Assembly: GCF_902506425.1 (NCBI RefSeq)
Contig: NZ_LR732469.1
Span: 2,031,285 to 2,095,284 of the forward strand
Length of the DNA: 64,000 nt
Direction of reading: 5' to 3'
DNA from: Novosphingobium sp. 9U
GTDB lineage: Bacteria; Pseudomonadota; Alphaproteobacteria; Sphingomonadales; Sphingomonadaceae
Shown here: positions 6,348 through 6,949 of the stretch, piece after piece
Numbering within the stretch: the stretch's first letter is position 1
Layout: the number at the start of each line of letters is the position of its first letter
Program-made: the position numbers and the translations under genes
The notes under the pieces: generated by a model
What the model saw: only the letters and a program-made list of their open reading frames with translations
Told to the model about the DNA's origin: nothing
Database searches by the model: none

Positions 6348-6387
6348 GAGGCGCCATCAGCCCGGGCCGGCACACGTCGACCCGGGC

Positions 6388-6416
6388 TTGACATTTAGAA
6401 CCATTTAGGTTACATG
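6388..6416 (+). promoter_or_regulatory. Strong sigma70-like promoter for a candidate RNA gene
   Basis: A perfect -35 box TTGACA (6388-6393) is followed by a 17-base spacer and a -10-like TACATG (6411-6416). Predicted transcription starts near 6423. The spacer contains a small inverted repeat (AACC-N5-GGTT). The promoter begins 40 bases after the OmpA-family stop and points into a region without a recognisable protein, at the edge of a set of nested complementary segments. Confidence 0.65.
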
Positions 6417-6420
6417 CCGC

Positions 6421-6720
6421 AGCAGCTTGAGCAGACTTCGGTCTGCGCCAGCATCACGGCGGGTGCGGAAGCGGCAGAGACGTTTGCCTCACCAGACCCC
6501 GCGCCAGCGGTCGGCCGTTCCGACGGGAACACCACCAATTTGCGAAGCCAAGCAGTCCGGCGGTCAGCTGCGAGCCCTAGCCGCCGGCGCTTCGCGAACC
6601 CAGGGCCGAGTTCGGCGTGCTCAGTTTCCTCCGCCGGCCGTTCGCAAGATGGAACCTCAGCCAAGCCTGTCGTGTCAGGCACCTCGCCGGCCGCAGCGCC
6701 GTGACTTCAATTCTGGCGTT
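6421..6720 (+). ncRNA. Candidate structured RNA of about 300 nt, family unknown
   Basis: Directly downstream of the promoter lies a GCAGAC-UUCG-GUCUGC hairpin (6431-6446). Three nested long-range complementary blocks follow: CGCCAG 6446-6451 with CUGGCG 6713-6718, CACGGCG 6455-6461 with CGCCGUG 6697-6703, and GCGG 6465-6468 with CCGC 6691-6694. Inside are further hairpins: CCGGCGG/CCGCCGG around 6550-6590, GCGAAC/GUUCGC around 6595-6645, and GCCUG-ucgugu-CAGGC at 6665-6680. Such ordered nesting suggests a compact multi-branched RNA. I could not match it to RNase P RNA, tmRNA, 6S or SRP RNA. The terminator is unclear, and high GC raises the chance of fortuitous pairing. The 3' end is approximate. 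Confidence 0.5.
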
Positions 6721-6750
6721 ATCCCGTGCTCGCCGGCGGGCGCAGGCGCT

Positions 6751-6910
6751 TGTCCTCCCCGGATCGGGGAGGGGGACCGCCAGCGTAGCTGGTGGTGGTG
6801 GGGACTCGCGTACTCAAGCTGCGCTTGCCGGAACCCGCCGCGAACCTAGCGTCATGCCGAGAGTCCCCTCCACCACCTGCGGTGGTCCCCCTCCCCGTGC
6901 CGGGGAGGAC
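6751..6910. repeat. Long imperfect inverted repeat element
   Basis: Left arm CCTCCCC-ggat-cGGGGAGGGGGACCgcc and right arm ggtGGTCCCCCTCCCC-gtgcc-GGGGAGG face each other across about 90 bases, with further arm matches (GGTGGTGGGGACTC / GAGTCCCCTCCACCACC). The whole element can fold into one long hairpin. It belongs to the same palindrome group as the elements near 4.1, 17.7, 54.8 and 60.4 kb. No gene is seen between 6720 and 6949. Confidence 0.75.
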
Positions 6911-6949
6911 AGCAGCACGCAACCTAGCGCCAGCAGCTGAACTCAAACA

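What the first reader, a model, noticed from the sequence alone, without database searches (positions are those of the whole stretch)
6388..6720. Possible undescribed structured RNA of about 300 nt behind a near-consensus promoter
Seen: TTGACA-N17-TACATG, then a UUCG hairpin, then three nested complementary blocks (6/6, 7/7 and 4/4 bases, all perfect) that pair positions 6446-6468 with 6691-6718, and at least three internal hairpins. No protein-like frame explains this. Known RNAs of this size (RNase P, tmRNA) have sequence signatures I do not find. Inference: a multi-branched housekeeping or regulatory RNA. High GC makes chance pairing possible, but ordered nesting directly behind a promoter is less likely by chance.
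Basis: partly seen in the sequence, partly recalled or inferred. Interest (0 to 1): 0.75.

Follow-up and report, generated by a model that had tools for sequence, protein, structure and literature searches.

The report
Multi-copy structured RNA genes in sphingomonads
The stretch looks like one copy of a family of large folded RNA genes, not catalogued in Rfam, that some sphingomonad bacteria carry in several scattered copies, each with nearly the same promoter; what the RNA does is still unknown.

Summary
Window 6387-6755 is one of 7 dispersed copies in its own genome of a promoter-driven, pseudoknotted RNA of about 315-515 nt. A covariance model of the 3' domain matches 70 of 195 genomes of the genus (Novosphingobium, inferred), 16 of 199 drawn from the family and 2 of 385 drawn from the class, both in the same family. 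Seven genomes reach the 14-copy scoring cap. Rfam has no gathering-level match in the window or in 20 related loci. On 23 full-length copies 35 of 62 pairs change on both sides (17.6 in shuffles). A promoter CTTGACA-N5-AACC-N5-GGTTATA with an embedded palindrome lies upstream of 57 of 66 model hits. No reading frame is conserved. The window site lacks the RNA in 17 of 17 same-genus relatives, while some other positions are shared between species or genera. Most likely: a regulated, trans-acting scaffold RNA evolving by birth and death. Transcription and function are untested. An RNA-carrying mobile unit is the most novel reading not excluded.

The parts
6387..6755 (+). whole unit: promoter plus structured noncoding RNA gene (one of 7 copies in this genome)
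   Evidence: own-genome DNA search and model R1; in 56 copies (near-identical ones included) information content is at background just before CTTGACA and from the second base after the 3' end
6388..6416 (+). promoter: -35 TTGACA 6388-6393, 17-base spacer, -10 TACATG 6411-6416
   Evidence: 57 of 66 model hits with upstream sequence score 21-32 of 32 consensus matches, downstream control 13-17; this copy scores 29
6399..6412 (+). palindrome AACC-N5-GGTTA between -35 and -10, operator-like
   Evidence: exact in 6 of 7 own copies; same or slightly varied in the promoter-bearing relatives
6431..6446 (+). first hairpin with UUCG loop; region variable among copies, missing in some (e.g. L015, L019)
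6456..6461 (+). P1 5' strand, pairs with 6697-6702 (in this copy extendable to 6454-6461 with 6697-6704)
6697..6702 (+). P1 3' strand
6464..6503 (+). P2 hairpin (6464-6468 with 6499-6503)
6507..6515 (+). P3 5' strand, closes the multibranch core; pairs with 6686-6694
   Evidence: 7 of 11 pairs of this helix change on both sides in relatives
6686..6694 (+). P3 3' strand
6541..6596 (+). internal arm: 6541-6544 with 6593-6596, then 6559-6562 with 6582-6585
6613..6636 (+). helix a: CGGCG 6613-6617 with CGCCG 6632-6636 (read from the sequence; the A3 alignment puts this copy in a poorer register)
   Evidence: covariation of this helix in relatives
6626..6654 (+). internal pseudoknot b: TTCC 6626-6629 with GGAA 6651-6654 (read from the sequence, weak in this copy, stronger in relatives)
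   Evidence: own-partner mean energy better than any of 5000 partner permutations over 37 diverged copies
6665..6680 (+). hairpin c: GCCTG 6665-6669 with CAGGC 6676-6680, in the conserved AGCCAAGCCTGTCG region
6715..6755 (+). 3' terminal domain: hairpin 6723-6727 with 6736-6740; GGCG 6715-6718 complementary to loop CGCC 6731-6734 (pseudoknot or alternative pairing); outer stem to about 6755

Best explanation
The locus is one member of a family of dedicated noncoding RNA genes of Sphingomonadaceae. A sigma-70-type promoter with a built-in palindromic operator makes a transcript of about 315-515 nt (about 330 nt here, from about 6423 to about 6755). It folds into a closed multibranch core (P1, P3) with an internal pseudoknot and a conserved 3' terminal hairpin. 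Shown by comparison: conserved promoter sequence, covarying structure, no conserved reading frame, several dispersed copies per genome, decay and replacement of copies, and in three orthologous pairs change no faster than the flanks. Inferred: it is transcribed; the palindrome binds one regulator that controls all copies together; the RNA works in trans as a structured scaffold (RNA-protein or RNA-only complex) whose dose is set by copy number, with copies gained and lost by birth and death. The confidence refers to the statement that this is a functional RNA gene family; the trans-acting scaffold role alone I put at about 0.45.
For: Seven copies in the own genome. Model R1: 70 of 195 genus genomes, 16 of 199 drawn from the family, 12 of 96 genera, 11 of 296 from the order, all in the same family, 2 of 385 from the class, both in the same family. 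Covariation on A2 (67 distinct rows): 18 of 23 pairs with double changes, 12.6 in shuffles; score 0.358 against 0.160 shuffled and 0.06-0.10 slid. On A3 (23 full-length copies): 35 of 62 pairs against 17.6 shuffled and 11-17 slid. Pseudoknot b: 0 of 5000 permutations reach the own-partner mean over 37 copies. Promoter: 57 of 66 hits with upstream sequence score 21-32 of 32, control 13-17; of the 9 misses 5 (L062, L071, L074, L087, L088) have under 200 bases of upstream sequence. Scanning public genomes for the promoter pattern alone gave loci of which 32 of the 80 listed hold an R1 match, 31 of these on the same strand within 400 nt downstream; some of these loci are copies that R1 was built from, so the test is only partly independent. 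Orthologous pairs: RNA 92.9% against 87.7-88.8% in flanks, 96.6% against 93.4-95.2%, 99.5% against 98.1-99.0%. ATG near the -10 in 20 of 57 copies, frames of 2 to 182 codons.
Against: No transcript data. No U-run terminator found. Patchy presence and near-identical copies at unrelated sites fit a selfish element as well as a beneficial gene. No specific partner gene found next to the copies. A2 was fitted to R1, and the A3 structure was drawn by me from these sequences; the slid and shuffled controls fall far below, but related rows inflate such counts. In A3 the outermost P1 columns 48/374 and 49/373 pair in 3 of 22 and 3 of 23 copies. In the permutation test the own partner ranks at the median 7th (b) and 9th (P1/P3 strand) of 37, not first. 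The G-U to A-C ratio on this strand (126:60 and 72:37) is barely above what column make-up predicts (180:101 and 123:83), so it does not settle the strand. 48 of the 80 promoter-pattern loci have no R1 match, including sphingomonad records such as Hankyongella and Glacieibacterium. In the own genome the palindrome is not enriched overall: 16 sites against 17 for the reversed pattern.
Confidence: 0.8

Rival explanations
1. A non-autonomous mobile DNA element (MITE or PATE-like) whose conserved ends (TTGAC plus palindrome, terminal hairpin) are transposase recognition sites and whose inner hairpins serve transposition as single-stranded DNA, not as RNA.
For: Units of about 340-460 bp with sharp ends and up to 99.6% identity at unrelated sites; the window site lacks the RNA in relatives; TTGAC directly at the left end would fit a fixed target of an IS200/IS605-type enzyme (recalled). 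The G-U/A-C count does not exclude it.
Against: No terminal inverted repeats or target duplications seen by eye at the 12 copies printed, apart from a 3-base ATC at L084. The Y1 transposase family (PF01797) gives no match in the own genome at E 1e-6 and is not significantly linked to the RNA: 24 of 70 carriers against 31 of 125 non-carriers, Fisher p = 0.19. The -10 box and 17-base spacing are conserved. The structure includes a long-range covarying multibranch and a pseudoknot. Some positions are shared between species or genera.
Confidence: 0.12
2. A mobile or selfish RNA gene: the RNA itself promotes its spread (by guiding or recruiting an enzyme supplied in trans), so RNA structure is selected for mobility, not host benefit. 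This overlaps with the best explanation, which leaves open whom the RNA serves.
Against: The promoter is inside the spreading unit, so plain RNA retroposition cannot explain it; no linked enzyme found; single detected copies at a shared position in two other genera.
Confidence: 0.22
3. A cis element of the neighbouring gene (long 3' UTR, attenuator or terminator of ompA or cysQ).
For: It lies in the 3' intergenic space between two convergent genes.
Against: The own copies lie beside different genes (read by eye; cluster analysis); the promoter is part of the unit; 0 of 17 same-genus cysQ loci have the RNA, 12 of the 17 with ompA in the fetched locus.
Confidence: 0.02
4. A small protein gene whose ATG lies in the -10 box (6414-6704, 96 codons).
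For: An open frame of 96-97 codons exists in this copy and in L004.
Against: Only 20 of 57 copies have an ATG near the -10 and the frames run from 2 to 182 codons; no Pfam match; a one-base indel between near-identical copies L005 and L006.
Confidence: 0.01
5. A divergent form of a known RNA (RNase P, tmRNA, 6S, SRP, HEARO, GOLLD, ROOL or another Rfam family).
For: Size and complexity are similar to several of these (recalled).
Against: No match at gathering thresholds in the whole window or 20 family loci; no convincing sub-threshold match inside the RNA in the window or 6 loci; multi-copy and patchy, unlike RNase P, tmRNA, SRP or 6S (the single, universal state of those is recalled).
Confidence: 0.03

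Closest known systems
Large ornate bacterial RNAs: OLE, GOLLD, ROOL (abstract and section 8 of PMC12286853 read)
   Same: Large bacterial RNAs with an intricate fold supported by covariation and modest sequence conservation
   Different: No Rfam match; about 315-515 nt; matches only within Sphingomonadaceae in the draws made here; several to at least 14 gene copies per genome with a shared promoter and palindrome; oligomerisation untested
HEARO RNA of IsrB (343 nt, named in PMC12286853 section 8)
   Same: Size; dispersal like that of a mobile-element RNA (recalled)
   Different: No Rfam match, no nuclease gene among recurring neighbours seen here, carries its own conserved promoter with a palindrome
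IS200/IS605-derived MITEs (PATEs) and REP/RAYT repeats (recalled)
   Same: Short intergenic dispersed units without target duplication, hairpins near the ends
   Different: Long-range covarying multibranch and pseudoknot, sigma-70 promoter geometry, no significant link to Y1 transposases
Multicopy bacterial sRNAs such as Listeria LhrC (title and start of abstract of PMC4132741 in the listing)
   Same: Several paralogous regulatory RNA genes per genome
   Different: Here large, pseudoknotted and scattered over many sites that change between species

Membership tests
Structured noncoding RNA gene | compensatory base changes beyond shuffled and slid controls | tested here: met
Structured noncoding RNA gene | own conserved promoter sequence | tested here: met
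   (57 of 66); partly independent support (32 of 80). Promoter activity was not tested
Structured noncoding RNA gene | no conserved reading frame | tested here: met
Structured noncoding RNA gene | discrete transcript | not testable with these tools
   no expression data available
Any Rfam 15 family (incl. RNase P, tmRNA, 6S, SRP, HEARO, GOLLD, ROOL, OLE) | score at or above the family's gathering threshold | tested here: not met
   (window and 20 loci); relaxed scans
OLE/GOLLD/ROOL-type RNA-only oligomer | homo-oligomeric assembly | not testable with these tools
   needs mass photometry or cryo-EM
IS200/IS605-type MITE (PATE) | a Y1 transposase able to mobilise it, associated with it | tested here: not met
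   no PF01797 match in own genome; 24 of 70 carriers vs 31 of 125, p = 0.19
IS200/IS605-type MITE (PATE) | insertion at a fixed short target kept in the empty site | tested here: inconclusive
   the two G161 sites compared look like decayed RNA remnants, not clean empty sites
Classical MITE | terminal inverted repeats and target-site duplication | tested here: not met
   none visible by eye at the 12 copy ends printed, apart from a 3-base ATC at L084; no systematic search was made
Protein-coding gene | conserved open frame | tested here: not met

The most novel reading that the evidence does not exclude
An RNA-only mobile unit of bacteria: a promoter-operator plus a pseudoknotted RNA, with no protein gene of its own, that multiplies and is homogenised across the chromosome through a host or trans-encoded enzyme recognising the RNA or its terminal structure, with one regulator silencing all copies through the shared palindrome. 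It would be a bacterial counterpart of SINE-like elements.
Probability: 0.2. Interest if true: 0.85.

Novelty: new variant of a known kind. Interest (0 to 1): 0.74.

Why it matters
Few bacterial noncoding RNAs of this size and complexity are known, and the best-known ones are single-copy (recalled). A family with a conserved promoter and palindrome, covarying pseudoknots, up to at least 14 paralogues per genome and no Rfam entry is an open target: it may be an RNP scaffold, an RNA-only assembly or an RNA-based mobile element. Novosphingobium and its kin include easily grown soil and water strains (recalled), so expression, partner and deletion tests are feasible.

Tried and rejected
Folding energy alone hardly separated the RNA from shuffles. 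Rfam at gathering and relaxed thresholds: searches gave no match; one search gave weak hits, mostly to microRNA models, on the neighbouring palindromic repeat and one weak CRISPR-repeat hit on the reverse strand across the 3' end (14.2 bits, E 8.1); one search gave 8 sub-threshold hits, none inside the RNA. The family-wide pattern scan was mis-specified (gap 5-9 instead of 3-9; 0 of 119, even the own genome) and says nothing. Viral contigs: 34 with the promoter pattern, 0 with the RNA. Plasmid records (distant mode): 12 records, all Sphingomonas, best places at query 414-570, in the flanking palindromic repeat. Neighbour genes: (about 3-kb loci) found shared ORFs mainly where loci are orthologous or inside the RNA, plus TonB-receptor-like ORFs beside 4 loci (L004, L007, L036, L051), a very common family in these bacteria (recalled); (15 windows of 19 kb) found shared genes only in three pairs of windows (L327/L329 at one locus, L328/L336, L333/L335). 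Y1 transposase co-occurrence: not significant. Empty sites in a close relative: of two sites tested, one clearly and one more weakly shows a decayed 3' domain, judged by eye, which argues for decay but leaves the insertion junction undefined. Weak R1 hits at the order-level cysQ loci (L117 17.6 bits E 0.004, L119 14.8 bits) were not followed up. Some genomes counted at E 0.001 have only weak hits (for example G031, G357, G389) that were not checked for a promoter.

Rows dropped before counts: alignment A1 left out L006, L014, L027 and L033 of 28; A3 used 23 of 57 promoter-bearing copies (main subtypes; L003 and L004 were among 25 considered and left out). Of 69 model hits in A2, 3 had no usable upstream sequence and 9 had no recognisable promoter. 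The permutation test used 37 representatives of 57. Copy numbers are lower bounds where 14 candidates were scored. Literature: 8 searches listed no paper that by title and abstract start describes such an RNA; of the listed papers I read only an outline, abstract and section 8 of PMC12286853 and a term search of PMC2864571 (2010 survey of 104 candidate RNAs: no occurrence of sphingomonad, novosphingobium, erythrobacter or alphaproteobacteria; other spellings were not tried).

Full report
What was checked. On a single sequence this is not convincing: fold z-score -1.65, 5 of 100 shuffles fold as well, and the simple scanner reports no promoter-like or terminator-like site. Rfam 15 has no match in the window at gathering thresholds; relaxed, the hits fall on the palindromic repeat at about 6762-6900, apart from one 14-bit CRISPR-repeat hit on the reverse strand. 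ARAGORN finds no tRNA or tmRNA gene in the window.

A family appears. A DNA search of the own genome with 6350-6735 finds a second long match (71%) and further partial ones, which resolve into seven copies. They lie beside different genes: here an OmpA-like lipoprotein; elsewhere, as read by eye from the sequence ends, groEL, a TonB-dependent receptor and a GGDEF protein. Copies L005 and L006 share 343 bases at 98%, the block beginning at TTGACA and ending in the 3' hairpin. In another genus (G263) copy L068 shares about 460 aligned bases with L084 (99.6%) and L092 (96.5%) at unrelated sites, beginning exactly at TTGACA and ending at the 3' stem. Over 56 copies, near-identical ones included, information content is at background just before CTTGACA and from the second base after the 3' end. 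In some genomes the shared block is longer: about 130 bases further at the 3' side in G051.

Distribution. A covariance model of the 3' domain (R1, 165 positions) matches 70 of 195 genomes of the genus, 16 of 199 drawn from the family, in 12 of 96 genera, 11 of 296 from the order, all in the same family, and 2 of 385 from the class, both in the same family, all at E 0.001; a few counted genomes have only weak hits. Viral contigs with the promoter pattern carry no copy (0 of 34).

Promoter. Upstream of the model hits the string CTTGACATTTATAACCATATAGGTTATATGCC recurs at 21-32 of 32 matches in 57 of 66 hits that had upstream sequence; the best match in downstream controls is 13-17. Of the 9 misses, 5 have under 200 bases upstream; L014, L094, the second L024 hit and L078 are real misses. 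Scanning public genomes for TTGACANNNNNAACCNNNNNGGTTATA gave 80 listed loci of 120 fetched; 32 of the 80 contain an R1 match, 31 of them on the same strand within 400 nt downstream, L190 being the exception. The other 48 include unrelated bacteria, as chance predicts, and some sphingomonads. The palindrome AACC-N5-GGTTA sits between -35 and -10. In the own genome 16 sites match it, against 17 for the reversed pattern, so it is not enriched overall; but the 6 with TTGAC[AG] at the right distance are all RNA copies. A regulator of the whole family is a natural inference; it is not shown.

Structure. On A2 (67 distinct sequences, 3' domain) 18 of 23 pairs change on both sides (12.6 in shuffles) and the covariation score is 0.358 (0.160 shuffled; 0.06-0.10 when strands are slid). 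A2 was fitted to R1. On A3, a plain MAFFT alignment of 23 full-length copies with a structure I drew from these sequences, 35 of 62 pairs change on both sides (17.6 in shuffles, 11-17 slid) and 85.3% of cells pair (38-49% slid); the two outermost P1 columns pair in only 3 of 22 and 3 of 23. An internal pseudoknot was not part of the R1 structure: own-partner energies average -8.46 kcal/mol, cross-partner -5.90, and no permutation of 5000 reaches the own mean over 37 diverged copies; the 5' half against the P1/P3 3' strand behaves likewise. The own partner ranks at the median 7th and 9th of 37, so single copies are noisy. The 3' end carries GGCG complementary to the loop of the terminal hairpin; L063 has GACG and CGTC instead, a change on both strands. 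In this window P1 is 6456-6461 with 6697-6702 and P3 6507-6515 with 6686-6694. G-U cells outnumber A-C cells about 2:1 (126 to 60 in A2, 72 to 37 in A3), but column make-up alone predicts 1.8:1 and 1.5:1, so this hardly bears on the strand. No reading frame is conserved: 20 of 57 copies have an ATG near the -10, with frames of 2 to 182 codons.

Evolution. The window site is an insertion in this lineage or a loss elsewhere: of 17 other same-genus cysQ loci none has a significant R1 match (best 9.8 bits, inside cysQ). In 12 of the 17 the ompA-like gene is in the fetched locus. Between the compared ends the spacing is 70-112 bases in L098, L099, L100 and L103, 138 in L114 and 287 in L108, against 609 here; in L104, L106, L109, L110, L111 and L113 it exceeds 1.1 kb, in several with an extra gene visible by eye. 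Other positions are older: five genomes share a psp-like locus and three a glutamate-dehydrogenase locus (gene names read by eye from the ORFs), and two other genera with a single detected copy each share a locus with a DUF4136 protein and an M14 peptidase. Of 8 copies compared in G060, 4 have orthologues among the 5 copies looked at in G161; at two of the other sites G161 shows what looks like a decayed 3' domain, one clear, one weaker. In three orthologous pairs the RNA changes no faster, or more slowly, than the flanks: 92.9% against 88.8 and 87.7%; 96.6% against 95.2 and 93.4%; 99.5% against 98.1 and 99.0%. At the psp-like locus one flank agrees at 86.5% between L020 and L059 while the RNA is of another subtype (53.5%). 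So copies appear to be gained, lost, homogenised and swapped.

Mechanism. Committed view: a regulated, trans-acting structured RNA, acting as scaffold of an RNA-protein or RNA-only assembly, with dose set by copy number. Shown by comparison: promoter sequence, structure, copy dynamics. Inferred: transcription, a common repressor, trans action. The main rival is a selfish RNA unit; a pure DNA element recognised by a Y1 transposase is less likely (no PF01797 match in the own genome; 24 of 70 carriers against 31 of 125 non-carriers, p = 0.19).

Known relatives. OLE, GOLLD, ROOL and HEARO are the closest in kind (PMC12286853, abstract and section 8 read), not by Rfam membership. Eight literature searches listed no account of this RNA by title and abstract start; surveys outside the library were not seen. 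Novelty: a new family of large bacterial RNA, unusual in being multi-copy with a shared promoter and palindrome.

Noticed in passing
window 6756-6935: Long palindromic repeat (arms of the CCTCCCCGG...CCGGGGAGG type) directly behind the RNA; similar repeats follow at least 5 of the 7 own-genome copies by eye and cause spurious microRNA-model hits.
   Followed up: partly
L128, L135, L136 near 1500; L137 near 1110 (own genome): Four own-genome sites share a different motif, CTTTCCTACA followed by AACC-N5-GGTTA, possibly another promoter or regulator family.
   Followed up: partly
L020 versus L059 (psp-like locus): Same genomic position with one flank 86.5% identical, but RNA of a different subtype (53.5%): the RNA appears to have been swapped in place.
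   Followed up: partly
G161:C16 98020-98154 and G161:C22 56173-56401: Apparent decayed remnants of the RNA's 3' domain without promoter (first clear, second weaker) at sites occupied by intact copies in the close relative G060.
   Followed up: yes
L069, L085, L093 (G292): Copies lie in 835-891 bases of shared sequence with many short repeats around the RNA.
   Followed up: no
L036 and L304-L312 (G051): The block shared among copies extends about 130 bases beyond the 3' end in most pairs, so the repeated unit is longer in this species.
   Followed up: no
L117 2311-2487 and L119 2006-2208: Weak R1 hits (17.6 and 14.8 bits) in other families of the order, possibly chance.
   Followed up: no
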